A DNA stretch of 64,000 nt from the NCBI RefSeq assembly GCF_025822765.1, contig NZ_JACKUK010000009.1:186973-250972 (forward strand), given 5' to 3'. Shown here piece after piece: positions 6,543 through 52,431 of the stretch. Source of the stretch: Mycobacterium barrassiae. GTDB lineage: Bacteria; Actinomycetota; Actinomycetes; Mycobacteriales; Mycobacteriaceae. Both the position numbers and the translations under genes were made by a program. The stretch's first letter is position 1. Each line of letters begins with the position of its first letter. The notes beneath the pieces are model-generated. The model was not told where the DNA came from and ran no database searches. It saw only the letters and a program-made list of their open reading frames with translations.

Positions 6543-7607
6543 TTACGAGTTGATCGGTTTGGGTTGCACGTCGTCGAGTTCGTTCTGCGCCGTCACGATC
6601 GAGTTGTAGCGGCCGTCGACGTAGGGCTTGAGGTCCACGTGCGTCTTGGTGACGCCCGTTTCGAACAGGCCGTCGGCGACGTCCTGGAACAGCGCGGTGG
6701 ACTCGGCGTCGATCGGGTAGTAGGAGGCGAGACCATCCTCCTCGTAGAGTTTCTTGCCCTGATCGAAGGTGATGCCCTGCTGATCGACGTAGTAGGCGTT
6801 GATCCATTCGTCGGGGTGGGTGTCCTTCCAGTTGTTGGCCGCGACGGCGCGGCCGACGTAATCGCCGATCGCCGCGGCCTTGACCGGGTCGTCGAGTATG
6901 TCGCGACGCACGATCAGCGTCTGGATGCCGGTGTTGATACCGGTGCCGTCGCCGAGGATCGGGGGTTCGCCCAGTTGGTAGTACTGGTTTCCGAGCACGA
7001 TCGCCGCATCGACGGCGCCGGACGCGAACGTCGGAACCACCTCTGCCCCAGCGAGTTCCACCGGCTGCACGTCGGTGTGCAGGTCCAACCCGTGCTTCTT
7101 GAGCAACGCGGCCGTGATCATGTGCCGACCAGACCCCGGCGGGTACGCGACCTTCTTGCCGCGCAGCTGCTCGATGCTGGTGATCCCGCTGTTGGGCCGG
7201 CCGACGAGGTAGTAGCCGCCGCTGGAGCCCGGGTTGGCCTGCAAACCGATCGTGACCAGATCGGTGACACCGCTGTCGACGGCGATCGGCACCGGTGCCT
7301 CACCGATGGAGCCGACGTCGGCGGCGCCCGAACGCAGCGCTTCGATCACCGCGGCCCCGCCGCTGAAGTCGGCGAATTCCACGCCATACGGCGCATCCTT
7401 GCCGGCATTCGCGAGGTTCCACGGTAGCGATTGGGTGGAATTCTGCTCGGCGACCACGAGTTTGGTGCCCGGCGGTACCTCCACGGTGTTCGCGATGCGT
7501 ACGGTGTCGATGGCGGCGTTCCCGCCATCGCCGTCAGAGAGACCGCATGCGGCCGCCAACAACGAAACCGCAAGCGCCATTGATAGTTTCCAGCGTGAAG
7601 GGAACAC
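6543..7607 (-). CDS. ssuA: Sulfonate ABC transporter substrate-binding lipoprotein
   Basis: A 354-aa periplasmic binding protein of the NitT/TauT/SsuA type. The N-terminus is a lipoprotein signal with lipobox AAAC (Cys at residue 21), so the protein is probably anchored outside the cytoplasmic membrane. The body has the SsuA-like pattern, including an NSTQSLPWN segment, a DVGSIGEAP pocket element and an LRGKKVAYP motif. The start is GTG 7607, preceded by an AAAGGA ribosome site; a later ATG at 7580 would damage the signal peptide. It lies 24 nt after ssuB. The neighbouring dioxygenases indicate organosulfur uptake. Confidence 0.9.
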   Translation of the reverse strand: MFPSRWKLSMALAVSLLAAACGLSDGDGGNAAIDTVRIANTVEVPPGTKLVVAEQNSTQSLPWNLANAGKDAPYGVEFADFSGGAAVIEALRSGAADVGSIGEAPVPIAVDSGVTDLVTIGLQANPGSSGGYYLVGRPNSGITSIEQLRGKKVAYPPGSGRHMITAALLKKHGLDLHTDVQPVELAGAEVVPTFASGAVDAAIVLGNQYYQLGEPPILGDGTGINTGIQTLIVRRDILDDPVKAAAIGDYVGRAVAANNWKDTHPDEWINAYYVDQQGITFDQGKKLYEEDGLASYYPIDAESTALFQDVADGLFETGVTKTHVDLKPYVDGRYNSIVTAQNELDDVQPKPINS

Positions 7608-10240: not shown

Positions 10241-12021
10241 TCACCGCGGCCAGCGCGTGTCGAGGATGTCGAGAATGTGTGGCAGACGTGAGCGGTACCG
10301 CGCCTTGTCGAGCTGTTTGAACGGGATCCACCACGGCGCCTGGAACAACTCGACGATCTTGACCATGTCGCCGTTGTAGCCCGACGCCTGCAGCACACCG
10401 TTGGCGGCGTAGCGGCCACCTTCGTTGGCGCCCTCCATCGTCGTGACGTTCTGGTCTGTCTTGATCCATTCGCCCGCGAGAAACAGGTTGTCGATCCCGG
10501 TGACCGCCGACGGGCGACGATTCCACGACCCGGGATCCTGGATGAACAACGGCTCGTCGTTCCTCACATCGGGCGTGCCCGAGTCGATGATCGCCGGGTC
10601 GAGAAACCACGAGTGCAGCATGCTGTCGGTGACGACGGTGTCGGTGTCGTTGAGGTGGGCCTTGATCTGCCTCCACGCCTCGGCCGCGATCTCGTCGGGG
10701 GTGCAGTCCCTGGCGCTCTTGCGGTTGAAGTTCCCAGGAGTGGTCCAGTCGGAGATGATCGCCGACATGCAGTCCCTCACGGCGCCGTCGCCGAAGTTGG
10801 TCAAACTCTTCTTCCAGAACTGCTCTTCGCTGATCGACGTGATCGCCCACCCCGAGTCGACGTAGTTGACGTGACCCTTCGTCACGTCGACCCGCTTCTT
10901 GAGGTAGAACATCAGGCCGTTCATCCATTCGGTGCGCAGCAGGGCGATGTTCGCCAATTGCGGATCCGCCGCGATCAGATCGGGCGTCAGCACCGCTGCC
11001 ATCTTCTCGCACGGAATCGCCGACACATACCAGTCGGCGGTGACCTGCTGCGGCACGCCACCGGGGCCGACGACGGTCGCGGACTTGATGTGCTTACCGT
11101 CCGGGTTGAGACGGGCCAACGCCTGGCCGACGTGGAATGTCACGCCCTGGTCGCGCAGGTGTTCCACCCACGGGTCGAGCCACTGCGAGCTCGTGGGCCC
11201 GTTCAGCACCCGGTCGAAACCCTTGAAGTCGATGTCGTTGCCGAACAGCAGGATCGACCAGACCGATGCCTCACCCACCAGTCCGATCGAATGTGCGCTG
11301 GCATCACGGGATTTCGATGCGGCGAGGTTGCGAATGATGCCGTCGGCCAGATAGCGGTTGTACTCGGGAGACAGCCGGTTCGCACCGATGTAGTCCTCCC
11401 ACGTCATGTTCTCCCACTGGCCCAGCTTGCGTTCGTCGCAGCTGGTGACGTACACCGCGAGCTTCTGCGCCGCATAGGCGGCCTCCCACAGCGGCAACCG
11501 GAACAGAGTCCGAACACCGTCGTCACGGATTCAATGAATGCCTTCGGCGTGATCGGATTGGGGATCGTCGGCAGCGGAAACGGCAGTGGCACAGTGAGGT
11601 CCGAGCGTCCAAGTCCGGAATGCAGATACGACGTCGCCCGTGTCAGGTTCTCCCATGCACCGTTTCGGTTGCCGGGGAACGGAACTCGTCGCATCGTGTC
11701 GGTGACGTTGCGGTAGAAACCAGGGAAGAAGCGGAATCCGTGTTCGGCGGGCAGCGGTGTCGCACCGGAGTTCGGCACCGGGATCGAGCGGGCCTTGCCG
11801 CCGAGCGCTTTCCGTTCGTACACGGTGACGCTGTAGCCGCGGTCGACCAGTTCGTGGGCCGCCGTCAGCCCCGCGATGCCTGCGCCGAACACCGCCACCG
11901 ACTTGCCGGGCGCCGCCCGAGCGGCCGGCGGCAAAGCCGTCAACGCCGCCGCGGTCGCCGTCCCCACCAAGAACGACCGCCGAGTCACCCGCGGCCGCGA
12001 GCCCCCACCCCGCATGGCCAT
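10241..12021 (-). pseudogene. Tat-exported FAD amine-oxidase-like protein, one frameshift
   Basis: Flavoprotein of the amine oxidase/phytoene desaturase superfamily, about 592 aa if repaired. The N-terminus has a twin-arginine signal (TRRSFLVG followed by an alanine-rich stretch), then the FAD motif GAGIAGLTAA and the second-strand acidic residue in VTVYER. The C-terminal FAD-binding signature LFLAGEWIKT and an EGANEGGRYAANG segment are intact. The frame changes near 11516, between TTVFGL and RLPLWEAAY, consistent with loss of one G from a GG pair. It resembles mycobacterial oxidoreductases with a Tat signal, and the substrate is unknown. Real decay and a sequence error cannot be separated here. 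Confidence 0.8.
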
Positions 12022-12028
12022 AAGTTAA

Positions 12029-12046
12029 TAGTGATTCTCATCACTA
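12029..12046. promoter_or_regulatory. 18-bp palindrome upstream of the Tat flavoprotein gene
   Basis: Perfect 7-nt arms TAGTGAT and ATCACTA are separated by TCTC, placed 7 nt upstream of the flavoprotein start codon. Position and symmetry suggest a repressor operator. The AT-rich composition recalls Fur/Zur-type sites, but it does not match a consensus I can assert. Confidence 0.4.
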
Positions 12047-12085
12047 CGGGTGCGACACGCCGTCGTGGCCTGCTGCAGAGTTTGC

Positions 12086-12778
12086 TCAGTGTGACGGCTT
12101 GATCGCGGCGTGCAGCGCCACGATCCCGCCCGTGAGGTTGCGCCAGCGGACCGCCGACCAGCCCGCGTCGGCGATGTCGCGCGCCAGGTCCGGCTGGTCG
12201 GGCCAGGCGCGGATGGACTCGGCGAGATAGACGTAGGCATCGGGGTTCGACGACACCGCGCGCGCCATCCGCGGCAGCGCCTGCATCAGGTACTCCTTGT
12301 AGAGCGTCGCGAACGCACGGTTCGTCGGCGTCGAGAACTCGCACACCACCAGCCGCCCGCCGGGCTTGGTCACGCGGGCCATCTCCCGCAGCGCCGCGGA
12401 GTGGTCGACGATGTTGCGCAACCCGAAACTAATGGTCACGCCGTCGAATACCCCGTCTGCGAACGGCAGTTTCGTGCCGTCCGCGGCGACCTTCGGCACG
12501 GTGCGCGAATGACCGGCGGCGAGCATGCCGACCGAGAAGTCCGCGGCCACACACCAGGCACCCGACGTCTGCAGCTCGACCGTCGACACCGCGGTACCCG
12601 CCGCGAGGTCGAGCACCGTGTCGCCGGGCCCGATGCGCAGCGCCGAACGCGTCGCCCGTCGCCAGAACCGGTCCTGACCGAGGGACAACACGGTGTTGGT
12701 GAGGTCGTAGCGGCGTGCCACCGCGTCGAACATCGACGCGACCTCGTGGGGGTCCTTGTCCAGCGTCGCTCGGCTCAC
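12086..12778 (-). CDS. menG: Demethylmenaquinone methyltransferase MenG
   Basis: SAM-dependent C-methyltransferase of the UbiE/MenG family, which converts demethylmenaquinone to menaquinone. The 230-aa product shows SAM motif I (VLDLAAGTA, about 48-56), the family motif [17 protein letters not shown] and the C-terminal [18 protein letters not shown]. It starts at GTG 12778 with SRATLDKDP, like Rv0558. Longer upstream frames overlap the divergent SDR gene and lack family similarity. It lies downstream of no clear operon partner: the divergent SDR gene begins 70 nt upstream. Confidence 0.95.
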
Positions 12779-12848
12779 AGCGCCGACGCTACCTGCCGAC
12801 TTAGTGACAACGGGAATGCCCAGCGCCATTCCGGGCATTCTGTGCAAT

Positions 12849-13673
12849 GTGACGGAAAAAGTTTGGTTCATCACCGGGACATCAAGGGGCTTCGGGCGCG
12901 AGTGGGCGATCGCTGCCCTGGAGCGCGGCGACAAGGTGGCGGGCACCGCCCGCAACACGTCGACCATGGACGATCTCGTCGAGAAGTACGGCGACGCGTT
13001 ATTACCCCTTCAGCTGGACGTGACCGACCGCGAGGCGGACTTCGCCGCGGTGAAGCAGGCGCACGACCACTTCGGGCGGCTCGACATCGTCGTGAACAAT
13101 GCCGGCTACGGCCACTTCGGCTTCATCGAGGAGGTGACCGAGCAGGAGGCGCGCGACCAGATCGAGACGAACGTCTTCGGCGCGCTGTGGGTCACCCAGG
13201 CGGCGCTGCCGTATCTGCGGGCGCAGCGCAGCGGGCACATCATCCAGGTGTCGTCGATTGGCGGGATCGTCGCGTTCCAGAACGTCGGCATCTATCACGC
13301 GTCGAAGTGGGCCTTGGAAGGGTTCTCGCAGGCGCTGGCGCAGGAGGTCGCGCCATTCGGGGTGCATGTCACGTTGATCGAGCCGGGCGGCTTCTCGACC
13401 GACTGGGCGGGCTCGTCGTCGCGCCGCTCGAAGCCGCTGCCCGACTACAAAGAGGTGCACGAGGAAGCCGACCGGATCCGCAGCCGGCGGGTGGCCGATC
13501 CGGGTGATCCGCAGGCGTCGGCGCGGGCGCTGCTCAAGGTCGTCGACGCCGAAAACCCGCCGCTGCGGGTCTTTTTCGGTGAGCTGCCGTTGCAGTTGGT
13601 CAAGGCCGACTACGAGAGCCGGTTGGCGACGTGGGAGGAATGGCAGCCGGTCGCCGTCCTGGCACAGGGGTAG
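12849..13673 (+). CDS. Short-chain dehydrogenase/reductase
   Basis: A 274-aa classical SDR. Seen are the cofactor motif TGTSRGFG (about 8-15, with Arg favouring NADP), NNAGYG for the NAG motif, and the catalytic Ser in VSSIGG with YHASK as the YxxxK. The C-terminal substrate region is long and ends with LATWEEWQP, typical of many actinobacterial oxidoreductases. The GTG start at 12849 gives the usual [12 protein letters not shown] opening. It is divergent from menG with 70 nt between, and convergent with mgtA across a palindromic repeat. The substrate is unknown. Confidence 0.88.
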
Positions 13674-13683
13674 CGCTCCGTTC

Positions 13684-13743
13684 GCGAGCAGACGCAAAAG
13701 TCCCCGACACGCCGGGGTTTTGGTGCTATTTGTGTCTGCTCGC
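13684..13743. repeat. Palindromic repeat family A, copy 1
   Basis: 60-bp near-perfect inverted repeat with 15-nt arms matching at 14 of 15 positions (13684-13698 and 13729-13743; core CGAGCAGACGCAAA). It lies between convergent SDR and mgtA genes. A 29-nt part (13685-13713) is the exact reverse complement of 32948-32976 in copy 3. Confidence 0.8.
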
Positions 13744-13753
13744 CGAGAAGGGG

Positions 13754-14875
13754 TTAGGCGGCTTTGCGACGGCGCAGACCGATGACGTCGTCGTAGTGAC
13801 CGAGTAACTCGTCGCAGATCGCAGGCCACGTTCGACTGAGCACGCTGCGACGGGCCGCGACCGAATAACGCTGCCGTTCGCCGATCAGGTGGTCGACGGC
13901 GTCGGGCAGCCTGGCTTCGAATTCGTCGACGGGCAGCAGCAGCCCGGTGCGGTACGGCGCGACGAGGTCACGCGGGCCACCGGCATCCGGGGCGATCACC
14001 GGCAGGCCCGACGCCATCGCTTCCTGGACCGCCTGGCAGAAGGTCTCGTGCTCGCCGGGGTGGACGAAGACGTCCATGCTGGCATAGGCGGCGGCCAGCT
14101 CTCGCCCATAGAGCGCTCCGGTGAAAACTGCTGAGGGTAGGCGACTTCCGAGCTTCCGGCGGTCCACACCGTCACCGACTACGACCACTTGCAGGCGCTC
14201 CGACAGCACCGCCAGCCGCTCGACGTGCTTCTCAGGGGCGAGGCGGCCGACAAAGCCGACAATCGGCTTGCCCTCCGGCGACCACATGCGGCGCAGCCCG
14301 TCGTCGCGCGCCGACGGCGCGAAACCGGTGATGTCGACGCCGCGTGCCCACTTGTAAACCCGCGGGATACGGTGGGTCATCAGGTTTTCCATCGCCGCGG
14401 TGGACGGGGCCAGCGTGCGGTCGGCCCGACTGTGTAGGTGCCTTGTCCACGCCCACGCGGCTCTGGCGGCGAAGCCCACACCGTAGCTTTCGGCGAAACC
14501 GGCGACGTCGGTTTGGAATACCGCGACCGTCGGCACGCCGAGGTAACGCGCGGCGTGCAACCCGCCGTACCCGAGCAGCGCCGGGGAGGCCAGATGCACG
14601 ACGTCGGGCTCGAAGCCACGCAGCACGCCCACCATTCGCGGGCGAGGCACGCCGAGGGGCAGCGAGTTGATCTTCGGGAACATCCGCGACGGCACCCGAT
14701 GGACGCGGACGCCGTCGTGGATCCGCTCCGCGGGCGGTGCGCCTCGCGGCGTGTCCGGCGCGATGACGAGGGCCTCGTGGCCGGTGCGGCGCAGATGCTC
14801 GATCACCCGGAGCACCGAGTTGGTGACGCCGTTGACATTCGGGAGGAACGACTCTGCGACGATGGCAACCCGCAC
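13754..14875 (-). CDS. mgtA: GDP-mannose-dependent alpha-mannosyltransferase MgtA
   Basis: GT4-family (GT-B fold) glycosyltransferase of 373 aa, equivalent in position and sequence style to Rv0557 (MgtA, formerly PimB). The N-terminal motif is [14 protein letters not shown], the nucleotide-sugar domain has [15 protein letters not shown], and the donor-binding EX7E motif is in [16 protein letters not shown]. In the family it mannosylates a glucuronic-acid diacylglycerol acceptor on the cytoplasmic side during envelope glycolipid synthesis. GTG 14875 is the start; a longer frame to 15031 would overlap the divergent lipoprotein gene. It is convergent with the SDR gene across repeat A1. Confidence 0.9.
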
Positions 14876-43241: not shown

Positions 43242-44648
43242 TTACGGTCCGCGTTCGGGGTTTTCGTCGCCGTTCTCTGGTGGGCGCAGGAGTAGTTCGG
43301 GGCGGTGGTAGTAGTTGATGCGGGTTTGGCCGGTGTCGAGGTCGGGTGGGGGGATCCATTCGACGTCGCCGTGGTCGTTGATGGTGGTGGTCCAGCCGCC
43401 GTGTTTGTCGACGAGGCGGTTGTCGGGTCCGCACGCCAGGGCCAGGTCGTTGACGTTGGTGTTGCCGCCGTCGGCCCAGTCTTGGCGGGCGTGGTGGACC
43501 TGGGTGCCGTAGGCCGGGATGGGGCAGGAGGGTTTGGTGCAGCCGCCGTCGCGGCCGATGAGCATGATCCGTTGCGCGGCGGTAGCGCTGCGTTTGGCGC
43601 GGAACAGGTCGAGGGCTTGGCCGGTGGCGCCATCGAAGACGGCCAGCCACTGGTGGGACCGCCCGGCCAGGCGGATGACGTCGGTGATGGGCAGGGTGGT
43701 GCCGCCGCCGGTGGTGCCCACTCCGGCGCGGGATTCGAGGTCTTGCAGGGTGGTGCGGATGATGATCGAAGTCGGTAGCCCGTTGTGTTGACCCAGATCC
43801 CCGGAGGACAGGACGTGGCGGCCGAGGGCGAGCAGGGCGTCGTGGCGGCGTTGGGCCAGGGTGCGCTGATCGCGCTCGATCTGGTCTTGGGTGGGGGTGG
43901 CGGTCAGGCAGGGTTGGTCGTCGTCGGGGTTGCACATCCCGGGGGCCGACCATTTGGCCAGGATGGGTTCATAGATCGCCCAGCCTTCGGGGGTGAAGGT
44001 GCCTTGGAAGGAGACGGTGCCGTCGCGGTGTTGGGGGCCGATCTGCAAGCCGCGTTTGCGGGCGCGTTCTTTGTCGTCGGGTTCGGGGCCGTCCTGGTCG
44101 AGCAGGAACAGCAGTTTGTCGGCGACCTTTTTCAGTTCGGTGGGTCCGACGCCGGTGGCGGTGGCCACCAGGTGGGCTTCGATCTGTTCGCGGGTGAGGG
44201 TGTCGACGAAGGTGGGCAGGTGGCCCATGGCGTCGCGGATCTTGTCGACGTGTTCGGTGTTGATGCGGCCGGCGGCTTGGGCGGCGGCGGTGGCGGGCAG
44301 CACCGGGGCCAGGGGTTGGCCGGTCAGGGCTTGTCGGGGTCCGAGTTCGGCGGCGGCGCTCAGGCGGCGGCCGGCGTCGCTGGTGGTGATGCGCCAGCGG
44401 ATGGCCAGCACTTCTTTCCACGATTTGGCGCCCAGTTCTTTGGGGGTGGTTTCGGTCTGCAGCCGCGCCAGGGCGCGATGCCATTGGGTGGGCAGTTGGC
44501 AGGTCAGGGTTTCCAGCTCGTCGAGCACACCCAGTAGTTCGCGGTGGGTCAGGGAGTCGAGGTCGCAGCCGGCCAGGGTGTCGTGGGCGTCGCGCAGCGC
44601 GGTCAGGGCTACCTGCACCGGCGTCGCCAACATGATTCGAACGTACAT
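43242..44648 (-). CDS. 13E12-family HNH endonuclease-like protein (DUF222)
   Basis: A 468-aa DUF222/HNH protein of the mycobacterial 13E12 repeat family, whose members are multicopy and associated with mobile or phage-integration loci. The DUF222 domain covers about 10-330; the HNH part includes DGGCTKPSCPIPAYGTQVHHARQDWADGGNTNVNDLALACGPDN with two cysteines and the HH pair. Nuclease activity is inferred. ATG 44648 (MYVRIMLATP) is chosen over an in-frame start at 44723. Its upstream region has strong inverted repeats. It marks the boundary of the accessory block after menE. Confidence 0.88.
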   Translation of the reverse strand: MYVRIMLATPVQVALTALRDAHDTLAGCDLDSLTHRELLGVLDELETLTCQLPTQWHRALARLQTETTPKELGAKSWKEVLAIRWRITTSDAGRRLSAAAELGPRQALTGQPLAPVLPATAAAQAAGRINTEHVDKIRDAMGHLPTFVDTLTREQIEAHLVATATGVGPTELKKVADKLLFLLDQDGPEPDDKERARKRGLQIGPQHRDGTVSFQGTFTPEGWAIYEPILAKWSAPGMCNPDDDQPCLTATPTQDQIERDQRTLAQRRHDALLALGRHVLSSGDLGQHNGLPTSIIIRTTLQDLESRAGVGTTGGGTTLPITDVIRLAGRSHQWLAVFDGATGQALDLFRAKRSATAAQRIMLIGRDGGCTKPSCPIPAYGTQVHHARQDWADGGNTNVNDLALACGPDNRLVDKHGGWTTTINDHGDVEWIPPPDLDTGQTRINYYHRPELLLRPPENGDENPERGP

Positions 44649-44715
44649 TCGACCACCGACAAGCCCACCGCGAATGTGACAGCTGAAACCAAAGTGACAC
44701 AACGGATTTACGGCG

Positions 44716-44793
44716 AGCGACATTGTCGCTACGAGGCTGGCACATCGATATATCGCTTACAGGGTTATGTCCCGTCACATATGTGTAAGCGAT
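44716..44793. repeat. Inverted repeats upstream of the 13E12-type gene
   Basis: Two palindromes: AGCGACA-T-TGTCGCT (44716-44730, perfect), and 10-nt arms ATCGCTTACA (44752-44761) and TGTAAGCGAT (44784-44793), perfect, 22 nt apart. They may be regulatory sites or part of the repeated element carrying the 13E12 gene. Confidence 0.5.
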
Positions 44794-44842: not shown

Positions 44843-47527
44843 TCAGCTGCTCGCGAGCGCCCGCCTGGCGTAGGCACGCACATCCGCGTCCCCGTCATCG
44901 AGTGCGCCGGCCAACGCTTCTCGTGCGGCATCCTCCGACGCTGCCCATCGCGTGAGGCTCAGCACCGCGGCCTTTCGCACATCGAGATGCGGGTCGGACA
45001 GCGCCCGCGACAACGGCGGCACGGCGGCGAGCGGCGACGGCGCCCCGGCCAGCGCACGGGCGGCGCCCTGCCGAATCTGCCATGCGGACGCGGCGAGTGC
45101 GCCCTCGACGGTCGTCACGTCGACGTCGTCCCAGCCGATGGATCCCATCGCGGCAAGCGCGGCGGCCCGCACCAGCGGATCGGGATCCTCGATCAGTTCG
45201 CGGATCGTGTCGGCGCCAGTGCCCAGCGTGCCGAGGCCGTTCGCGACGCTGATCCGCACTTCCCGGTTCGCATCGCTGTACGCGGCGGCCACACCCTCGG
45301 CGTCGTCCACCGACACCAGCGCGCGGACAGCCTCGATCCGCACCCGGTGATCCTCGTCGGCAAGCGCATGCCGGAACTGCGAGGCGTTCCCGGCCCGTCG
45401 CGAACTCAGCACATAGACAGCAGCACCCCGAACAACAGGGTCCGCTGACGTCAGGAGGGTTCGCACGGCACCAGGGTCCGGCAGAACTTCGACGAGTTCG
45501 CGGATGCCATCCGCCGCGACGCGCCGCACCGAAGCATTGCCGTCATTCAGCGCCGCGAGCAGAGCCGGTGCGTAGCCGTCCGGCAGGTGTTCGGTGAGCA
45601 CATCGACGGCCGTACGACGGACTCCCGCATCGCCATCGGCCAGGAACGGCGCAAGCTGTTCCATCGTCGGCTCGTCGAGCGCCAGCACAGCGGCGATGCG
45701 CGGCGATGGCGGGGGTGCACCCGCACCGTCGCGCACCCGGGACACCTCCGACGCGGGGGCCTGTCCACCGACCAGATCGGGCTGCCGCACGGCGATGGGT
45801 TCCGTTTCGCCGCTGGGCAATTCGTCGAGCCCCGGCACAGGGACGAAGTACGGTGCGACGGGTCGCTTGAGGAACTCGATGTCACCGTCGACCGTCTTGC
45901 GAAGGTTGAGGTGGTAGCGCCACTCGACGTCGTCGCGATCGGGAGTGTCGCTGCGGTCGTGGTAAAGCCCCCAGCGCGACTCCGTGCGGGTGAGCGACGA
46001 GCGCGCAGCCATTTCGGCGCAATCGCGGATGAACGACACCTCAACCGCGCGCATCAGTTCGTGCGGTGTCCTCGCGCCGATGCCCGCAACCTCGTCGCGC
46101 ATCCGGTCGAAGGTCTGCACGGCGATCGACAGTTTGGCGGCCGTCTTGGGCGGAGCGACATAGTCGTTGACGAAACGGCGCAACTTGTACTCCACCTGCG
46201 GTTGCGGCGGACCGTCGGGATTGCGCAGCGGCCGGTAGATCAGTTCGTGTGCCTCGGCGATCTGATCATCGGGAAGCTGTTGTGGCGCTGTGACGTCAGC
46301 CAGGGTGGACGCTGCGTGGCTGCCTGCCAGATCTCCGTAGACGAACGCACCGATCATGTAATTGTGTGGCACGCAGGCAAGGTCGCCTGCCGCGTAAAGA
46401 CCAGGAACCGTGGTGCGGGCATTCTCGTCGACCCACACACCCGAAGCGGAATGACCGCTGCACAGACCGATTTCGGAGATGTGCATCTCGATGTCGTGGG
46501 TGCGGTAGTCGTGGCCGCGATTGGCGTGGAACGTGCCGCGGGTCGGCCGCTCGGTGGTGTGCAGAATCCCCTCGAGCGTGCTCAGCGTCTCATCGGGCAG
46601 GTGGCTGACCTTGAGATAGATCGGTCCGCGCGCCGACTCGATCTCGTTCTTGACCTCCGACATCATCTGTCCCGACCAGTAGTCGGAGTCGACGAACCGC
46701 TCCCCCTTGGCGTTGACCTGATAACCGCCGAACGGATTGGCGACGTACGCGCAGGCCGGCCCGTTGTAATCCTTGATCAACGGATTGATCTGGAAGCACT
46801 CGATTCCCGAGAGTTCGGCGCCCGCGTGGAACGCCATCGAGTAGCCATCGCCCGCGTTGGTCGGATTCTCGTATGTGCCATACAGATAACCCGACGCGGG
46901 CAGTCCCAGCCGTCCGCACGGGCCAGTCGCGAGAATGACAGCCTTGGCGCCCACGATGACGAACTCGCCGGTCCGGCTGTTCAATGCCGCGGCACCGACT
47001 GCCCGCCCACCGGAGGTCAGCACGCGGACAGGAACGAAGCGGTTCTCGATTCGGATCTTCTCGCGCATCGAACGTTGCCGGAGCACGCGGTACAGCGCCT
47101 TCTTGACGTCCTTGCCCTCGGGCATCGGTAACACGTACGAGCCGGACCGATGGACGCGCCGCACGGCGTACTCGCCGTGCTCGTCCTTCTCGAACTTGAC
47201 GCCGTAGCGTTCCAGCCGCTGGACCATGGTGAATCCGCGGGTGGCAGTCTGATAAATGGTGCGCTGGTTGACGATTCCGTCGTTGGCGCGGGTGATCTCG
47301 GCGACGTAGTCCTCGGGTGTGGCCTTGCCGGGGATGACCGCGTTGTTGACGCCGTCCATACCCATGGCCAGCGCGCCGGAATGACGTACGTGCGCCTTCT
47401 CCAGCAACAGAACCTGCGCGCCGTTCTCCGCGGCGGTCAGCGCGGCCATTGTTCCGGCCGTGCCACCACCGATGACAAGAACGTCGCAGTCGAGGCGGAT
47501 GGCGTCGTCGAGTGCGGGTACTTCCAC
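44843..47527 (-). CDS. AprA-like FAD oxidoreductase fused to a HEAT-repeat domain
   Basis: An 894-aa cytosolic protein. Residues about 13-560 form a fumarate reductase/APS reductase-type flavoprotein: GGGTAGTMAAL (20-30), LLLEKAHVRHSG, ILATGPCGRLGL, a INPLIKDYNGPACAYV segment that recalls AprA, and GLYAAGDLACVPHNYM. After a Pro-rich linker (about 570-610) come about seven HEAT repeats to the C-terminus (repeated DPxVRxxA pattern). HEAT fusion to this enzyme class is unusual. The gene ends an operon with an ABC importer and an AprB-like ferredoxin, so it probably reduces or oxidises the imported compound using the ferredoxin. Substrate unknown. ATG 47527 overlaps the ATPase stop. Confidence 0.85.
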   Translation of the reverse strand: MEVPALDDAIRLDCDVLVIGGGTAGTMAALTAAENGAQVLLLEKAHVRHSGALAMGMDGVNNAVIPGKATPEDYVAEITRANDGIVNQRTIYQTATRGFTMVQRLERYGVKFEKDEHGEYAVRRVHRSGSYVLPMPEGKDVKKALYRVLRQRSMREKIRIENRFVPVRVLTSGGRAVGAAALNSRTGEFVIVGAKAVILATGPCGRLGLPASGYLYGTYENPTNAGDGYSMAFHAGAELSGIECFQINPLIKDYNGPACAYVANPFGGYQVNAKGERFVDSDYWSGQMMSEVKNEIESARGPIYLKVSHLPDETLSTLEGILHTTERPTRGTFHANRGHDYRTHDIEMHISEIGLCSGHSASGVWVDENARTTVPGLYAAGDLACVPHNYMIGAFVYGDLAGSHAASTLADVTAPQQLPDDQIAEAHELIYRPLRNPDGPPQPQVEYKLRRFVNDYVAPPKTAAKLSIAVQTFDRMRDEVAGIGARTPHELMRAVEVSFIRDCAEMAARSSLTRTESRWGLYHDRSDTPDRDDVEWRYHLNLRKTVDGDIEFLKRPVAPYFVPVPGLDELPSGETEPIAVRQPDLVGGQAPASEVSRVRDGAGAPPPSPRIAAVLALDEPTMEQLAPFLADGDAGVRRTAVDVLTEHLPDGYAPALLAALNDGNASVRRVAADGIRELVEVLPDPGAVRTLLTSADPVVRGAAVYVLSSRRAGNASQFRHALADEDHRVRIEAVRALVSVDDAEGVAAAYSDANREVRISVANGLGTLGTGADTIRELIEDPDPLVRAAALAAMGSIGWDDVDVTTVEGALAASAWQIRQGAARALAGAPSPLAAVPPLSRALSDPHLDVRKAAVLSLTRWAASEDAAREALAGALDDGDADVRAYARRALASS

Positions 47528-48270
47528 TAGCTGACCAACTCCGAATGATCGAGGGCGGCAATCACTTCAGCCCGCAATGCGGTGCGGGCGACGGTGGTGT
47601 CGCGGGGTGAGGGAACGTCGAGCAGGGCACGCAGCGGTTGGCCCGCCCGGCCGAGCACGGCGATGCGATCGCCGATGAGCAGCGCCTCGTCCACGTCGTG
47701 GGTGACGAAGACGACGGTCGTCGGGTGCGCACGCCAGGTGTCGATGAGCAGACGCTGCATGGTGGCGCGCGTCTGGGTATCGAGGGCACCGAACGGCTCG
47801 TCCATCATGACCGCGCGAGGCGCACCGGCCAGGCCGCGGGCGAGTTGCACCCGCTGGCGCATCCCGCCGGACAAGCTCTTGGGCAGGTACCTCTCGAAGC
47901 CGGTCAGCCCGACGTCGGCGATCCAGCGCAACGCCTCCTCGCGACGGCCTTGCCGCGGCCGGCCCGCCAGCTTGAGCGCAAGCTCCACGTTGGATTGCAC
48001 TGTGCGCCAAGGCAACAGCGCGTTGTCCTGGAACACCATCGCGCGGTCGCGCGACGTGGTGGCGACCCGGACCCCATCGCCGAGCACCTCACCCCTGTCG
48101 GGAGACAGCAGACCGGCGAGCGCGCGCAACACGGTTGACTTGCCGCAGCCCGACGGCCCGGTCAGCACCAGGATCTCGCCCGGTGCGACGTCGAGGTCCA
48201 GTCCGTCGACGACGGGTGCGCCGCCGTAGCTGAGCACGATGTCGCGCAGCGTCAACGACATTCCGGTCAT
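47527..48270 (-). CDS. ABC transporter ATP-binding protein (NitT/TauT type)
   Basis: A 247-aa ATPase. Walker A GPSGCGKST (about 38-46), ABC signature LSGGMRQRVQ, Walker B VMMDEPFGALD and switch His in VTHDVDEA are all present. The subfamily imports nitrate, sulfonates, taurine or related small anions. It is part of the same operon as the permease, with overlapping stop and start codons on both sides (4 nt with the permease, 1 nt with the flavoprotein). It is a separate system from the ssuABC operon at 6.5-9.2 kb. Confidence 0.92.
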   Translation of the reverse strand: MTGMSLTLRDIVLSYGGAPVVDGLDLDVAPGEILVLTGPSGCGKSTVLRALAGLLSPDRGEVLGDGVRVATTSRDRAMVFQDNALLPWRTVQSNVELALKLAGRPRQGRREEALRWIADVGLTGFERYLPKSLSGGMRQRVQLARGLAGAPRAVMMDEPFGALDTQTRATMQRLLIDTWRAHPTTVVFVTHDVDEALLIGDRIAVLGRAGQPLRALLDVPSPRDTTVARTALRAEVIAALDHSELVS

Positions 48271-49130
48271 CGCGCGTTCTCCTCACCGCGGGGCAGCCAG
48301 CGCGTCACGCGGCGGCCGATCAGTTCGACGGCGGCCGACGTCGCGAAACCCAGCACGCCGATCGTGATGATGCCGACGAACACGTCGGGGTAGGCCAGCA
48401 CCGTGTACGCCTGCCAGGTGCGGTAGCCCACGCCCAGGCGACCGGAGATCATCTCGGCGGAGATCACGCAGATCCATGCGACGCCGATGCCGACCGACAG
48501 TCCGCCGAAGACGCCGGGAAGGATGCCGGGCAACACAACTCGCGTAATCACGTCCCAGCGACTGCCGCCGAGTGTGCGCACCGAGTCCTCCCACAGCGTG
48601 GGCAGCGCCCGCACCGCGTGGCGGGTGCTCACCATGATCGGGAAGTAGGCGGCGAGGAACGTGATGAAGACGATTCCGGCCTCGTCGGTGGGGAACAGCA
48701 GGATCGCGACGGGCACGATCGCGATCGCGGGGATGGGCCTGGCCAGTTCGGTGAGCGGACCGAACACGTTCGCGAACCTCGGAGACCGACCGAGCAGGAT
48801 GCCCGTGACGACTCCGGCAACCGCGGCGAGCGCGAAGCCGGTGAGGATACGAACCAGCGACTGGCCGAGGTCGAGCCAGTAGTTCTGCGTGCCGATGCGG
48901 GCGCCGAATGCCGAGACGATCTCGGTAACGGTCGGCAGCGTATCGAAGCGCAGCCACAGCCGAACATCGTTGGCCGTCAACACCTGCCACAACAGGATCG
49001 CCACCGCCACCGAGGCAATGCGCACCGGCCACGCCGTCCAGCTTCTCCGCCTCGGCGCACTGGCAGCGGATGTGCTCGGAACGCCGACGGCGGGCTCGTC
49101 GGCCGTCAGTACCGCGGGCGGAGCGGTCAT
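48267..49130 (-). CDS. ABC transporter permease (NitT/TauT type)
   Basis: A 287-aa inner membrane subunit with about six transmembrane helices. The EAA-like coupling segment is LWEDSVRTLGGSRWDVITRVVLPGILPGVFGGL (about 175-205). The N-terminal 25 residues are cytoplasmic and low in complexity. ATG 49130 overlaps the binding-protein stop (ATGA), and its own stop overlaps the ATPase start, so the three subunits are made in a tightly coupled order. Intact, in contrast to ssuC. Confidence 0.92.
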   Translation of the reverse strand: MTAPPAVLTADEPAVGVPSTSAASAPRRRSWTAWPVRIASVAVAILLWQVLTANDVRLWLRFDTLPTVTEIVSAFGARIGTQNYWLDLGQSLVRILTGFALAAVAGVVTGILLGRSPRFANVFGPLTELARPIPAIAIVPVAILLFPTDEAGIVFITFLAAYFPIMVSTRHAVRALPTLWEDSVRTLGGSRWDVITRVVLPGILPGVFGGLSVGIGVAWICVISAEMISGRLGVGYRTWQAYTVLAYPDVFVGIITIGVLGFATSAAVELIGRRVTRWLPRGEENAR

Positions 49131-50548
49131 ACCGCACCCACCAGTGCCGCTTGGTAGTCGACGACCGTCGCGCCGGGATGGCCGCCGATGTAGCGCTGCG
49201 CACCCGCCGGTGTGCCGAAGGGCAGGTAGTTCGGACCGTCCTTCACCCAGACGGACTTGTCGGCGAACCAGCGGGTGCCGAACTCGGTGTCGGGGACATA
49301 GGCGGCACGGATCTGCTCACCGCGTCCGTTGGCCTCGCGGATGGCCCGCAACAGGCAACCGGGGTTGGCGGCGGGTTGGGTGGTGTCAGCGCCGTCGATC
49401 CAGAGTTCGCCTGCCAGTTTGGGAACGGTGACCGCGATGTTGCAGACAGGGTCCTGACCGCTGAGTTCTGACGGGTTCTTGGCCGAGTTCAGCGCGGCGT
49501 CGTAGTCCTGGCCACGCTCGGCGAACGCCTTGCGGATCGCGGTGTCGTCGACGAACTCGTCGATGTTCAGGTCGGCGAAGTCGCCGATCGACTTGAGGTA
49601 GGGCACGTCACCCTTGAATGCCTCGATCAGTGACGGCTTCAGCGTGGTGTCGAAGCTGGTGCCGCCGGGACCGTTGTAGAGGTAGACGACCTCCTGGGGC
49701 AGGCCACTGCCCTCGGCGACGAGCCTGGCCGATTCCAGCGGATGCTGGTTGAGGAAGTCGGTGGCGTCGAGCTGAGCCTGCAGGAACGCGTCGAGCACCT
49801 CGGGGTGCTGGCCGGCGTAGTCACGGCGGACGACGACGCCGTGGAAGGTCGGGTAGTCACCCTCCGCGCCGTCGTACAACAGCTGCGCCTTGTCCTGGAA
49901 GACGAGCAGACCGGGCCAGGCGACGAACTGCGAAAGCGCCTCCACCTGACCTGATTCCAGTGCCGACGCCCCGACCTGCGGCTGCTGGTTGAGCACCTCG
50001 ACACCGGACTTCGGGTCGATGCCCGCGTTGTCGAGTGCGCGGACCAACGTGCCATGCCCCGCGGAGCCCACGCTTGCCGAGACCTTCTTACCCGCGAGGT
50101 CGGAGACCGAGCGGGCGGACGAGTTCGGCGGAACAACAATCATATTGAGAGAACCGGTGGGGCTGTATCCGGTGACCGAGACGAACTCCGTGCGGGCGCG
50201 TTCGTTGGCCTGGGTCTTGGAACCGTTGATCAGCAGGGGGTAGTCGCCCATGGAGCCGATGTCGATCTTCTCGGCCACCATCTGTGCGGTGATGGGAGCG
50301 CCCGTGTCGTAGTCCTGCCACTGCACGTTGTACTTCTTGCCGGAGGTGGTGGAGGCGTCATTGAGGCGTTGCTCGAGAAAGCCCTTGGCCCTCAACAGGG
50401 TTCCAGCGGTGACGGTGTTGATGGTCTTCGACTGATATCCGACGACGACGTTGACGGTGTCGTCGGACTGGGTCTGCGAGTCCAGTGAGCAACCGGCGAG
50501 AGCGGTGGCGCTGACGGCGGTGAGCAGTGCGGCGAGTGTGCGTTTCAT
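49127..50548 (-). CDS. ABC substrate-binding lipoprotein with C-terminal NosL-like domain
   Basis: A 473-aa exported lipoprotein, much longer than the usual about 320. The signal peptide ends in lipobox LAGC (Cys20). Residues about 30-355 are a NitT/TauT-type binding protein (SMGDYPLLINGS, LAGKKVSASVGSAGHGTL, ESGQVEALSQFVAWPG). Residues about 365-473 match the NosL pattern: DPVCNIAVTV, a GCLLRAIRE helix, IRAAYVPDTEFGTRWFADKSVWV, and FGTPAGAQRYIGGHPGATVVDY. In NosL the first motif (CxM) helps bind Cu(I); here the Met is Ile. The fusion suggests capture of a metal-linked or thiol-reactive ligand. ATG 50548 is chosen over a start at 50623. Confidence 0.85.
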   Translation of the reverse strand: MKRTLAALLTAVSATALAGCSLDSQTQSDDTVNVVVGYQSKTINTVTAGTLLRAKGFLEQRLNDASTTSGKKYNVQWQDYDTGAPITAQMVAEKIDIGSMGDYPLLINGSKTQANERARTEFVSVTGYSPTGSLNMIVVPPNSSARSVSDLAGKKVSASVGSAGHGTLVRALDNAGIDPKSGVEVLNQQPQVGASALESGQVEALSQFVAWPGLLVFQDKAQLLYDGAEGDYPTFHGVVVRRDYAGQHPEVLDAFLQAQLDATDFLNQHPLESARLVAEGSGLPQEVVYLYNGPGGTSFDTTLKPSLIEAFKGDVPYLKSIGDFADLNIDEFVDDTAIRKAFAERGQDYDAALNSAKNPSELSGQDPVCNIAVTVPKLAGELWIDGADTTQPAANPGCLLRAIREANGRGEQIRAAYVPDTEFGTRWFADKSVWVKDGPNYLPFGTPAGAQRYIGGHPGATVVDYQAALVGAV

Positions 50549-50564
50549 GGTGTGTCCTGGGGTG

Positions 50565-50792
50565 TTATCGGATGAGGTAGGGCATGTTGACGGTGACGGC
50601 GCCGGTGGGACAGCGCGCAGCACATGGGCCGCAGTACCAACACTCGTCGACGTGCATGAACGCCTTGCCGTTCTCGGGGTTGATGGCCAACGAGTCGAGC
50701 GGACAGATCTCGACGCACAACGTGCAGCCCTCGATACAGAGCGATTCGTCGATGGTCACCGGCACGTCGACGCGCTGATTGACCTGGGCCAT
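50565..50792 (-). CDS. AprB-like 2x[4Fe-4S] ferredoxin
   Basis: A 75-aa ferredoxin with eight cysteines in two clusters: Cys19, 23, 26, 30 (CIEGCTLCVEICP) and Cys51, 54, 57, 61 (CWYCGPCAARCP). The layout is that of AprB and of dicluster ferredoxins that serve flavoprotein reductases. With the AprA-like gene at the other end of the operon it likely forms the electron-transfer partner. ATG 50792 overlaps the GntR stop by one base (TGATG), so the two are coupled. Confidence 0.9.
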   Translation of the reverse strand: MAQVNQRVDVPVTIDESLCIEGCTLCVEICPLDSLAINPENGKAFMHVDECWYCGPCAARCPTGAVTVNMPYLIR

Positions 50793-51553
50793 CAAACTCC
50801 CCTAACCAGATTGCTGCGCAGGGTGATTCGATCCCCGCGCATTCGGATGTACTCGAGGTCGACGGGTCGGCCGTCGTCCAGATGGGTGAGGCGCTCCAAC
50901 AACAGGACGGGAGCGCCGTCGGGTACCTGCAGAATCGCCGCCGAATGCGGATCGGCGGCGACGGATTCGACTGCCAGGGACGCGCCGCCGAGGCGCTGAC
51001 CCGTGACCTTTTCGATGAGTGCGAAGACGTCGTTGCCCTCGAGCGAATGCTCGATGACCTCGCGACCGATGTCAGGGGCGAGGTAGGTCATGTCCAGCGA
51101 GAGTGGCAGATCGCCGAGGTAGCGCAGTCGCTCGATGAATACGACCGGTTCGGAAGATTCGAGTTGCAACCGGTGAGCGACCGCCGGCGGCGCGGCGAGG
51201 TTCATGGTCGCGCGCACCTCGTTGCGAATCTCGCCGTAGCCCTTGAACGTCTCCTTCAACCCGACGAGCGCGTCCAGACCATGGTCGTACTTGCGGATGG
51301 CGACGTGGGTGCCGGTACGGGGTCCGCGGTCGATGAGCCCTTCGTCCTTGAGCGCCGCGAGCGCCTCGCGAACGGTGTTTCGGGAGACGAAGAACTCGCT
51401 GGCGAGGTCCTGCTCCCCCGGTAGTCCATCCGAGTAGCCGCCCGCGTGGATTTGATGCCTGAGCACATCGGCGACAAGGCGTGCCTGGTCGGCGCGCGGA
51501 CGCCGGAGCGGCGTCGGCTCCACATGCTGCTCATAGGCTTCTTGGCCGGCCAT
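50792..51553 (-). CDS. GntR-family regulator, HutC type (UTRA domain)
   Basis: A 253-aa regulator. The N-terminal winged helix (about 15-85) includes GLPGEQDLASEFFVSRNTVREALAALKDEGLI and the wing RGPRTGTHVAIRKY. The C-terminal UTRA ligand-binding domain (about 100-250) has EPVVFIERLRYLGDLPLSLDMTYLAPDIG and PVLLLERLTHLDDGRPVDLEYIRMRGDR. It heads the operon and most likely represses it until a transported metabolite binds. ATG 51553 with a GGGGGAGGTG ribosome site; the frame continues to 51649 without similarity. Confidence 0.92.
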   Translation of the reverse strand: MAGQEAYEQHVEPTPLRRPRADQARLVADVLRHQIHAGGYSDGLPGEQDLASEFFVSRNTVREALAALKDEGLIDRGPRTGTHVAIRKYDHGLDALVGLKETFKGYGEIRNEVRATMNLAAPPAVAHRLQLESSEPVVFIERLRYLGDLPLSLDMTYLAPDIGREVIEHSLEGNDVFALIEKVTGQRLGGASLAVESVAADPHSAAILQVPDGAPVLLLERLTHLDDGRPVDLEYIRMRGDRITLRSNLVRGV

Positions 51554-51816
51554 GGTCACCTCCCCCGGGGCTGATCGACGTGTGACGGACCTGGTCAGTG
51601 ACGCTATCGGCGGATCCTCCCCTCGCCGAACAACCGCGGTTCGAGGCATGCAGGCGTGACGTCAATGCGCCGGTTCGTCGGGGAGCCGACCTGCTGTTAG
51701 GCGCCATTCGGCCACCATTGCGCCAGTTATGTACGGCCGAGCGATGTTCAAATCGCGGTGAGCAGAACACCCAGTCGTGGTTCCTCGGTGGATTCACGAG
51801 CGAGCATGATGTAGCC

Positions 51817-52431
51817 ATGCGCCACGAAGTCACCACCGTCGATGAGCTGCGCGCGCTCGTCGGTGAGCCGCAGCAGGCCGTCGCCAACAAGGTGAAGGAT
51901 CGGCTGTCCCCGGTTCAGCGCGACTGGCTGGCCCACTCGCCGCTCGGCTTCGTCGCGACAACTGATGCACACGGCCGCGTCGATGTGTCTCCCAAAGGCG
52001 ATCCGCCCGGCTTCGTCCACGTCATCGACGACACCACGATCGCCATCCCGGAACGGCCTGGCAACAAGCGCGTCGACGGCTACCGCAACGTCCTGCAGCG
52101 CCCCCAGGTCGGTACGGTGTTCCTCATCCCCGGCCGCGGCGACACGCTACGGATCAACGGGCGCGCCCGAATCCTTTCCGACGCGGACTATTTCGACGCG
52201 ATGGTGGTGCAGGGCAAGCGCCCCATCCTCGCGCTGGAGATCGACATCGAAGAGGTGTTCTTCCACTGCGCGAAGGCCTTCATGCGATCGGACACCTGGG
52301 ATCCGTCGACGTGGAATCCGACGGCTGTTCCCAGCGCCGCGCAGCTGGCCAAGGCCATCCGCACGGATTGGACGCAGGCGCAGCTCGACGAGTACTACAG
52401 CGAGGACAATTACCGCAAGATGCTCTACTGA
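51817..52431 (+). CDS. Pyridoxamine 5'-phosphate oxidase-fold flavin protein
   Basis: A 204-aa split-barrel protein of the PPOX-like class found in mycobacteria. Seen are LGFVATTDAHGRVDVSPKGDPPGFVHV, TTIAIPERPGNKRVDGYRNVLQRPQVGTVFLIPGRGDTLRINGRARI (flavin phosphate-binding) and a C-terminal DEYYSEDNYRKMLY tail. It may use FMN or F420; true pyridoxal oxidase activity is unlikely. ATG 51817 is chosen since earlier codons in the frame show no family features. It is divergent from the GntR operon with 263 nt between. Confidence 0.85.
   Translation: MRHEVTTVDELRALVGEPQQAVANKVKDRLSPVQRDWLAHSPLGFVATTDAHGRVDVSPKGDPPGFVHVIDDTTIAIPERPGNKRVDGYRNVLQRPQVGTVFLIPGRGDTLRINGRARILSDADYFDAMVVQGKRPILALEIDIEEVFFHCAKAFMRSDTWDPSTWNPTAVPSAAQLAKAIRTDWTQAQLDEYYSEDNYRKMLY

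What the first reader, a model, noticed from the sequence alone, without database searches (positions are those of the whole stretch)
44843..51553. Undescribed-looking import-and-redox operon: GntR, AprB-like ferredoxin, SBP-NosL, permease, ATPase, AprA-like-HEAT
Six genes with overlapping or closely spaced stops and starts encode a HutC-type regulator, a two-cluster ferredoxin, a NitT/TauT ABC importer and a flavoprotein resembling the APS reductase alpha subunit. An AprAB-like pair bound to a dedicated importer in an aerobic mycobacterium, away from sulfate-assimilation genes, suggests a pathway that reduces or oxidises an imported small (maybe organosulfur) molecule. I do not know a characterised system with this exact architecture.
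Basis: partly seen in the sequence, partly recalled or inferred. Interest (0 to 1): 0.8.

Follow-up and report, generated by a model that had tools for sequence, protein, structure and literature searches.

The report
Importer-linked sulfonate-reductase-like operon
A mycobacterium carries a conserved, uncharacterised six-gene unit that looks built to import an organic sulfur compound and act on it with a relative of APS reductase, an enzyme of sulfate respiration, probably to scavenge sulfur.

Summary
The six-gene operon exists as described (44843-51553, minus strand). All six genes in the same order are in 75 of 80 fetched actinobacterial loci; the other five lack genes and have contig ends close by. 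Relatives in proteobacteria and cyanobacteria, and one actinobacterial genome, have rearranged sets with HEAT as a separate gene. The flavoprotein family (NCBIfam PRK13800/PRK08275) is sister to APS/PAPS reductase alpha subunits (bootstrap 100), not grouped with fumarate reductases or aspartate oxidases; AprA Arg265 and the APS loop are not kept. Among solved structures the binding protein's four sequence matches are taurine or sulfonate binders. Some relatives' clusters hold exporter-type sulfur genes, Fe-S factors and, in two, ferredoxin plus ferredoxin-NADP reductase, which suggests reduction. Best explanation: import of an organosulfonate and reductive release of sulfite by an AprBA-like complex; substrate and chemistry are inferred. 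No functional description was recognised in the papers searched. New variant of a known kind.

The parts
50792..51553 (-). GntR/HutC-type regulator (GntR HTH + UTRA), 253 aa; first gene
   Evidence: found in 75 of 80 loci
50565..50792 (-). 75-aa ferredoxin with two [4Fe-4S] motifs, AprB-like partner; overlaps the GntR stop
   Evidence: matches APS reductase beta 3gyx_B 1.7e-8 and PAPS reductase beta 8a8o_C 6.8e-8, behind ten other ferredoxin-type chains that score better
49127..50548 (-). Lipoprotein-type ABC substrate-binding protein of SsuA/TauA fold
   Evidence: SsuA_fam 4e-38 (below that model's cut-off); AlphaFold pLDDT 84.7; best folds SsuA/TauA; the 4 PDB sequences matched at E <= 0.01 are taurine or sulfonate binders
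49127..49411 (-). C-terminal NosL-like extension of the binding protein (about residues 380-473)
   Evidence: by homology to relatives that hit NosL; pLDDT high; cysteines not conserved
48267..49130 (-). ABC permease (NtrB/TauC/SsuC class)
47527..48270 (-). ABC ATPase (TauB/SsuB/NrtD class)
44843..47527 (-). AprA-like FAD protein fused to HEAT repeats, 894 aa, GTG start
   Evidence: NF010374/PRK13800 1722.5 bits; tree
44843..45715 (-). HEAT-repeat domain of the flavoprotein (about residues 605-894); a separate gene in relatives
51747..51767 (-). Upstream dyad-like element, pattern TTNNNNTCACCNNGATTNNAA
   Evidence: one exact match in the genome, this one
51717..51724 (-). Upstream repeat GGCGCAAT, copy 1
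51664..51671 (-). Upstream repeat GGCGCATT, copy 2, 53 nt from copy 1
51601..51606 (-). TAGCGT, -10-like hexamer (TANNNT), inferred
   Evidence: reading of the alignment

Best explanation
An inducible uptake-and-reduction system for an organic sulfonate (or closely related organosulfur oxyanion) that feeds sulfite into sulfur assimilation. Inferred steps: the SsuA/TauA-fold lipoprotein binds the compound outside; permease and ATPase import it; the HutC-type regulator senses a ligand and controls the operon; inside, the dicluster ferredoxin passes electrons to FAD in the AprA-like subunit, whose N5 attacks the sulfo group, as proposed for APS/PAPS reductases, releasing the organic part and then sulfite. 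The HEAT part, with DUF971 or Mrp proteins in other phyla, most likely serves Fe-S maturation or assembly of the ferredoxin-flavoprotein complex. Shown here: the gene set, its conservation, the phylogenetic placement, the sulfonate-type binding-protein fold and the genome context. Not shown: substrate, direction, product.
For: Gene set conserved in 75 of 80 actinobacterial loci. In 16 plasmid-collection loci fetched of 48 close hits listed: flavoprotein and ferredoxin in 16, HEAT as its own gene in 15 and fused in 1, SBP+permease+ATPase in 13. Sister clade of AprA/PAPS reductase alpha, bootstrap 100. Best solved relative: PAPS reductase alpha 8a8o, 7.4e-60, for which N5-flavin attack on sulfur is proposed (PMC10322725, section 9 read). 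The Asn74 position of AprA is kept (Asn61). Binding protein: SsuA/TauA by fold and sequence. Sulfur context in some relatives, by annotation: TauE/SafE- or TSUP-type genes in L099, L102, L104, L124; YeiH/sulfate-exporter type in L099, L102; LLM oxygenases, 3-mercaptopropionate dioxygenase, rhodanese, DmoA-type monooxygenase in L101, L125, L127. FdxA plus ferredoxin-NADP reductase in L129 (annotated) and L123 (tblastn 60% and 66%) suggest electron input.
Against: AprA Arg265 is Leu250 and the APS-recognition loop is replaced, so the mechanism may not carry over. In the 80 actinobacterial loci tblastn at 1e-12 found no TauE, Mrp, DUF971 or FNR homologue, and one distant YeiH-like and one FdxA-like hit (short DUF971 could be missed at that threshold). 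Exporter names are annotations, not tested activities. The sulfur links come from other phyla and from part of the clusters (TauE/TSUP type in 4 of 16). The catalytic domain's AlphaFold model is unreliable (353 residues under pLDDT 50, all before residue 606), so no pocket could be examined.
Confidence: 0.43

Rival explanations
1. Asf-like electron supply, possibly asf itself under another regulator: flavoprotein and ferredoxin only deliver electrons to a separate monooxygenase such as SsuD that cleaves the imported (aromatic) sulfonate.
For: Published reading of asfAB (PMC4267179 passages). The make-up and, in Cupriavidus pinatubonensis, the order flavoprotein-ferredoxin-binding protein resemble asfABC. 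The own genome has an SsuD-like gene beside an SsuA-like gene. 28 of 33 operon-bearing Mycobacteriales genomes have an SsuD-like protein at E < 1e-100 (my threshold; only 1 of 298 genomes passes the family's own cut-off, and the own genome's does not); in the window's family 25 of 30 with the operon against 13 of 25 without (Fisher p 0.019, phylogeny not corrected).
Against: 5 of 33 operon-bearing genomes have no close SsuD (best E 3e-16 to 2e-23). In 80 loci SsuD-like hits occur in 5, all 7 kb or more past the flavoprotein. The CH34 replicon said to hold AsfA has no close relative of this flavoprotein. That an AprA-type subunit carries its own substrate site is general knowledge, not tested.
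Confidence: 0.25
2. Oxidative direction: the complex oxidises an imported or internally released sulfur compound (for example sulfite), passing electrons to a ferredoxin.
For: Dissimilatory APS reductases work reversibly (PMC10322725 section 9); an Acidithiobacillus caldus plasmid carries the genes.
Against: FdxA plus ferredoxin-NADP reductase in L123 and L129 suggest electron input; APS-binding features are not kept.
Confidence: 0.13
3. A non-sulfur substrate (aromatic acid, nitrogen compound, phosphonate) imported by a NitT/TauT-class transporter and acted on by the flavoprotein.
For: The fold hits also include nitrate, bicarbonate, thiamine-type and terephthalate binders; the regulator's best NCBIfam hit is PhnF, below its cut-off (100.2 against 156.8 bits); the permease's best is NtrB, below cut-off.
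Against: The four PDB sequence matches of the binding protein are taurine or sulfonate binders; sulfur genes recur in relatives' clusters.
Confidence: 0.2

Closest known systems
asfRABC arylsulfonate desulfonation cluster (Pseudomonas putida S-313; asfA reported in Cupriavidus, Variovorax, Rhodococcus and others)
   Same: Binding protein, ABC transporter, reductase plus ferredoxin and a regulator, for sulfonate sulfur (PMC4267179 passages).
   Different: GntR/UTRA regulator instead of LysR; HEAT domain; NosL-like extension. The AsfA sequence of S-313 was not available. C. metallidurans CHR2, where AsfA/AsfB are said to lie (Rmet_4334/5), has three distant matches to the window protein, 30-31% identity: a TcuA-type protein with TcuB, one with a NuoF-like neighbour, and a 549-aa FAD protein with a 111-aa ferredoxin. 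Which of them is Rmet_4334 I could not settle (record without annotation).
Dissimilatory APS reductase AprBA and the PAPS reductase of Methanothermococcus thermolithotrophicus
   Same: FAD alpha plus two-cluster ferredoxin beta; sister clade, bootstrap 100; shares the (E/S)(S/T)RW motif near the C-terminus and the PH...G.F region.
   Different: Arg265 position is Leu, APS/PAPS loop replaced, HEAT added, tied to an importer.
NCBIfam NF010374 (PRK13800) and NF006131 (PRK08275)
   Same: The window protein is a full-length match to PRK13800 (1722.5 bits, cut-off 1196); the two unfused relatives scanned pass PRK08275.
   Different: Both models are named 'fumarate reductase/succinate dehydrogenase flavoprotein subunit'; the placement argues against that name.
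Second FAD protein/ferredoxin family with NitT/TauT transporter genes (C. metallidurans 927881-929862, Azospirillum L134, Paenibacillus L135); perhaps AsfAB
   Same: Flavoprotein-ferredoxin pair beside the same transporter class; in Sinorhizobium americanum one such pair lies just upstream of this family's genes, a DUF971 gene between.
   Different: 26% identity over the aligned part, separate clade outside AprA; 106-111-aa ferredoxin in the two read.
SsuEADCB / TauABCD sulfonate systems
   Same: Same importer class and binding-protein fold.
   Different: No monooxygenase or dioxygenase among the six genes; the genome has a separate ssu-like locus.

Membership tests
NCBIfam PRK13800 (NF010374) | Score above the curated cut-off of 1196 bits over the full length | tested here: met
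   1722.5 bits, residues 1-893 of 894
Dissimilatory APS reductase (AprBA) | Alpha subunit inside the AprA clade / above the AprA model cut-off | tested here: not met
   Sister to, not inside, the clade of AfAprA (partial sequence), MtPAPSR and DIST_L113; TIGR02061 138.2 bits against a cut-off of 641.75
Dissimilatory APS reductase (AprBA) | APS-binding residues: Arg265 (role recalled) and the loop with Gln145 (PMC10322725 section 9) | tested here: not met
   Leu250 at the Arg265 position, invariant in 32 aligned actinobacterial proteins and Leu in the 5 relatives of other phyla aligned; loop replaced. By sequence alignment only
Dissimilatory APS reductase (AprBA) | Two-[4Fe-4S] ferredoxin-like beta subunit | tested here: met
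   8 cysteines in two motifs; matches 3gyx_B and 8a8o_C, but other ferredoxin chains score better
asfRABC | AsfA-type flavoprotein | tested here: inconclusive
   No close relative on the CH34 replicon said to carry AsfA; the reference AsfA of P. putida S-313 was not available and the CH34 gene could not be pinned
asfRABC | Growth on aromatic sulfonates as sulfur source depends on it | not testable with these tools
   needs mutants and growth tests
asfRABC | LysR-type regulator | tested here: not met
   GntR/UTRA here; a LysR substrate-binding-domain protein is annotated beside the cyanobacterial relatives L099 and L102
Succinate dehydrogenase/fumarate reductase/L-aspartate oxidase | Active-site Arg in HG(A/S)NRLxxNSL (role recalled) | tested here: not met
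   window has PHNYMIGAF; 4 of the own genome's 5 related proteins aligned have the motif
SsuA/TauA binding proteins | Overall fold | tested here: met
SsuA/TauA binding proteins | Score above the SsuA_fam cut-off | tested here: not met
   131.3 bits against 163.5, E 4e-38
NosL | NosL domain | tested here: inconclusive
   Pfam hit in 3 relatives (one over, one just under, one well under cut-off); none in the window copy
NosL | Copper binding | not tested
   only noted: cysteines are not conserved in the 24-sequence alignment

The most novel reading that the evidence does not exclude
A third, uncharacterised branch of AprBA-type enzymes that cuts the carbon-sulfur bond of imported sulfonates reductively, using ferredoxin electrons and flavin N5 chemistry and no oxygen, in actinobacteria, proteobacteria and cyanobacteria.
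Probability: 0.28. Interest if true: 0.85.

Novelty: new variant of a known kind. Interest (0 to 1): 0.6.

Why it matters
Most soil sulfur is organic, and bacterial release of sulfur from sulfonates is described as the work of a monooxygenase system (PMC4267179 and PMC10441942, passages). A conserved AprBA-like pair with its own sulfonate-type importer, found in three phyla, would mean another route. The asfA marker PCR uses primers named asfAF1all and asfBtoA (PMC9694294 passages), which by their names need asfB next to asfA (my inference); in the mycobacterial layout the ferredoxin gene lies about 3 kb upstream of the flavoprotein, so such a survey would probably miss it. The generic annotation as 'fumarate reductase' hides the family in genomes.

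Tried and rejected
Rejected: fumarate reductase/succinate dehydrogenase (the NCBI name) and L-aspartate oxidase, by tree and motif. Not kept as a claim: that it simply is AsfA, my first idea from memory (note); C. metallidurans CHR2, where AsfA/AsfB are reported, has only 30-31% matches, and the own genome has no closer relative of the CH34 549-aa FAD protein than this operon's own flavoprotein (44.8 bits).

Led nowhere: AlphaFold of the flavoprotein-HEAT (mean pLDDT 63.0; catalytic part poor, HEAT good). A two-repeat pattern written too strictly gave 0 matches, missing even the window's own site; the dyad pattern gave one exact match, the operon itself, and one with a mismatch, so no wider regulon was seen. 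A strict regular expression for the dyad matched 8 of 76 upstream regions. A simple LysR motif scan around the candidate AsfA genes printed nothing. Rfam: nothing at gathering level in 51400-51950. NosL is not among the 50 fold rows shown, where the larger domain fills the list. Recurrent-neighbour clustering by longest ORFs was too crude in GC-rich DNA. Literature on the family: listings only (20 of 38 shown; 6; 2; 15 of 32; 3); passages (the one paper holding PRK13800 uses it as a HEAT domain label in fungi). Vermeij 1999 and two Schmalenberger papers are not held. The R. qingshengii IGTS8 paper has no hit for flavoprotein, NitT or fumarate in its main text.
Full report
Observation. The operon is real and the coordinates are exact. 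On the minus strand, in order of transcription, come a HutC-type GntR regulator (50792-51553), a 75-aa two-cluster ferredoxin (50565-50792), a lipoprotein-type binding protein with an extra C-terminal domain (49127-50548), a permease (48267-49130), an ATPase (47527-48270) and an 894-aa flavoprotein ending in HEAT repeats (44843-47527). The C-terminal piece of the binding protein is NosL-like by homology: the window copy has no Pfam hit, but the same piece of the Bradyrhizobium relative passes the NosL cut-off (25.0 bits against 24), Acinetobacter just misses it (23.9) and Cupriavidus is weak (17.8).

Conservation. Of 80 fetched actinobacterial loci, 75 have all six genes in the same order and strand (recounted in 104); the other five lack genes and have contig ends close by (L012, L014, L026, L028, L054). 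Three of the 75 carry extra DNA inside (L042, L052, L088). In L014, a 4.3-kb contig, the ferredoxin lies directly before the flavoprotein, which deviates. The 80 are the best of 552 relatives found, so they are biased to close ones. PRK13800 is over its cut-off in 33 of 298 Mycobacteriales genomes and in 7 of 198 genomes drawn over the phylum, some of which were also in the first draw: it is patchy. Genome G214 has the order GntR, flavoprotein, separate HEAT gene, ferredoxin, binding protein, permease, ATPase; G074 keeps broken flavoprotein pieces, and no other operon gene was found in the 16-kb stretch taken.

Other phyla. In the plasmid collection 232 records match, 60 are listed, and 48 of these (H1-H48) carry a relative at 55.9% identity or more over at least 93% of the query. 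I fetched 16 of the 48 (L099-L106, L123-L129, L133). Flavoprotein and ferredoxin are in 16 of 16; a separate HEAT gene is in 15 and the fusion in 1 (Tsukamurella); binding protein, permease and ATPase are all within the stretch in 13; DUF971 in 8; an Mrp-type Fe-S carrier in 3, the three cyanobacteria. DUF971 and Mrp occur together in the plant Fe-S factor HCF101 (recalled); I take them and HEAT as maturation factors (inference). By annotation, TauE/SafE- or TSUP-type genes occur in L099, L102, L104 and L124, YeiH or sulfate-exporter type in L099 and L102. FdxA with a ferredoxin-NADP reductase occurs in L129 and L123, FdxA alone in L105. Genes annotated for organosulfur use lie close in L101, L125, L126 and L127. 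In L133 (Sinorhizobium americanum) a second flavoprotein-ferredoxin pair of another family lies just upstream, a DUF971 gene between. In the 80 actinobacterial loci, tblastn at 1e-12 found no TauE, Mrp, DUF971 or FNR homologue and one distant hit each for YeiH and FdxA.

What the flavoprotein is. NCBIfam: PRK13800 1722.5 bits, PRK08275 870.9, then an APS-reductase-alpha model 271.1, SdhA/FrdA 154.6, AprA 138.2. The best solved relative is the PAPS reductase alpha of M. thermolithotrophicus (7.4e-60). A tree of 33 sequences (538 columns, LG+R4, 1000 ultrafast bootstraps) gives the family 100 and the group family + AprA/PAPS reductase 100, and places the second FAD/ferredoxin family and the SDH/NadB-type proteins of the own genome outside. 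It was rooted on a long-branch protein of the own genome; the 1jnr row was partial. The motif HG(A/S)NRLxxNSL, present in 4 of the 5 own-genome proteins aligned, is absent; AprA Asn74 is kept (Asn61), the histidine of GGHGQAG in the PAPS reductase is kept (His359), AprA Trp234 is Tyr219, Arg265 is Leu250, and the loop that carries APS/PAPS specificity (PMC10322725, section 9) is replaced by a family sequence (numbering with the GTG-coded residue as 1). So it looks like an AprA-type flavin enzyme for another substrate. Catalytic roles of Asn74, Arg265 and His398 are recalled, not from a call.

What the binding protein is. SsuA family 4e-38, below that model's own cut-off; AlphaFold pLDDT 84.7; the best folds are SsuA (with sulfonate buffers) and TauA; the four PDB sequences matched at E 0.01 are taurine or sulfonate binders, one of them carrying the molecule name nitrate transport protein. 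The fold class also includes nitrate, bicarbonate and thiamine-type proteins, so this favours but does not prove a sulfonate.

Relation to asf. Reviews describe asfRABC as binding protein, ABC transporter, reductase/ferredoxin and LysR regulator needed beside ssu for aromatic sulfonates (PMC4267179 and PMC10441942, passages). The C. metallidurans genome paper names AsfA/AsfB Rmet_4334/5 on replicon CHR2 (PMC2864759, passages). On that replicon the window protein has three distant matches at 30-31% identity, none close: a TcuA-type protein followed by TcuB (793.5-796.2 kb), one beside a NuoF-like gene, and a 549-aa FAD protein with a 111-aa ferredoxin (927881-929862). I could not settle which is Rmet_4334/5. 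So the AsfA of that strain is not a close relative of the window protein if it lies on CHR2 as stated, but the reference AsfA of P. putida S-313 was not available, and identity with asf stays open.

SsuD. Among 33 operon-bearing Mycobacteriales genomes 28 have an SsuD-like protein at E < 1e-100 and 5 do not (counted by hand from the listings; the threshold is mine, and only 1 of 298 genomes passes TIGR03565's own cut-off). In the window's family it is 25 of 30 with and 13 of 25 without the operon (Fisher p 0.019, no correction for phylogeny). This is mild support for a shared sulfonate role, and evidence against strict dependence on SsuD.

Promoter region. Upstream of the regulator a block pattern is conserved over genera. 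GGCGYAWT occurs in 68 of 76 upstream regions (75 loci plus the window), against means of 1.6 of 76 in shuffled sequence and 2.1 of 76 in random windows of the same loci; two or more copies in 46 of 76 (means 0.02 and 0.7), with a spacing of 53 or 54 nt in 43 of these 46. Related sequences inflate such counts. A dyad-like element lies about 43 nt further up; its exact pattern occurs once in the genome. I read these as local operator sites, probably of the operon's own regulator (inference).

Verdict. Real, conserved, and not recognised as characterised in the searches made (listings). Most likely an organosulfur scavenging system with an AprBA-like reductase. New variant of a known kind; substrate and reaction remain to be shown.

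Noticed in passing
window 51664-51767 (minus strand): Repeats GGCGYAWT, mostly 53-54 nt apart, plus a dyad-like element upstream of the regulator, conserved over several genera; no Rfam family at gathering level.
   Followed up: partly
L133:8262-13567 (Sinorhizobium americanum plasmid): Two different flavoprotein-ferredoxin pairs, one of a second family and one of the PRK08275 type with HEAT, lie side by side with a DUF971 gene between; S. fredii L127 has a piece of the second family (6642-7331) upstream too.
   Followed up: partly
L064:21639-22679 (Nocardia brevicatena): A relative (57%) of the second FAD family lies about 9 kb past the operon at the end of the locus.
   Followed up: no
L135:7977-12947 (Paenibacillus plasmid): Two FAD protein/ferredoxin pairs in tandem with a binding-protein gene between and other ABC genes before them.
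   Followed up: no
L126:8899-15054 (Nostoc plasmid): Five genes (two HAD hydrolases, methyltransferase, GNAT, VOC protein) sit between flavoprotein and ferredoxin.
   Followed up: no
L138:7806-8982 (genome G074): Broken flavoprotein remnant; no other operon gene found in the 16-kb stretch.
   Followed up: partly
window 43242-44723 (minus strand): A 493-aa ORF just downstream of the operon that looks like an HNH-endonuclease/13E12-repeat protein (recalled resemblance).
   Followed up: no
L105:10102-14035 (Acidithiobacillus caldus pTcM1): The cluster is followed by FdxA and a large FAD-dependent oxidoreductase (10574-14035), a possible alternative electron entry.
   Followed up: no
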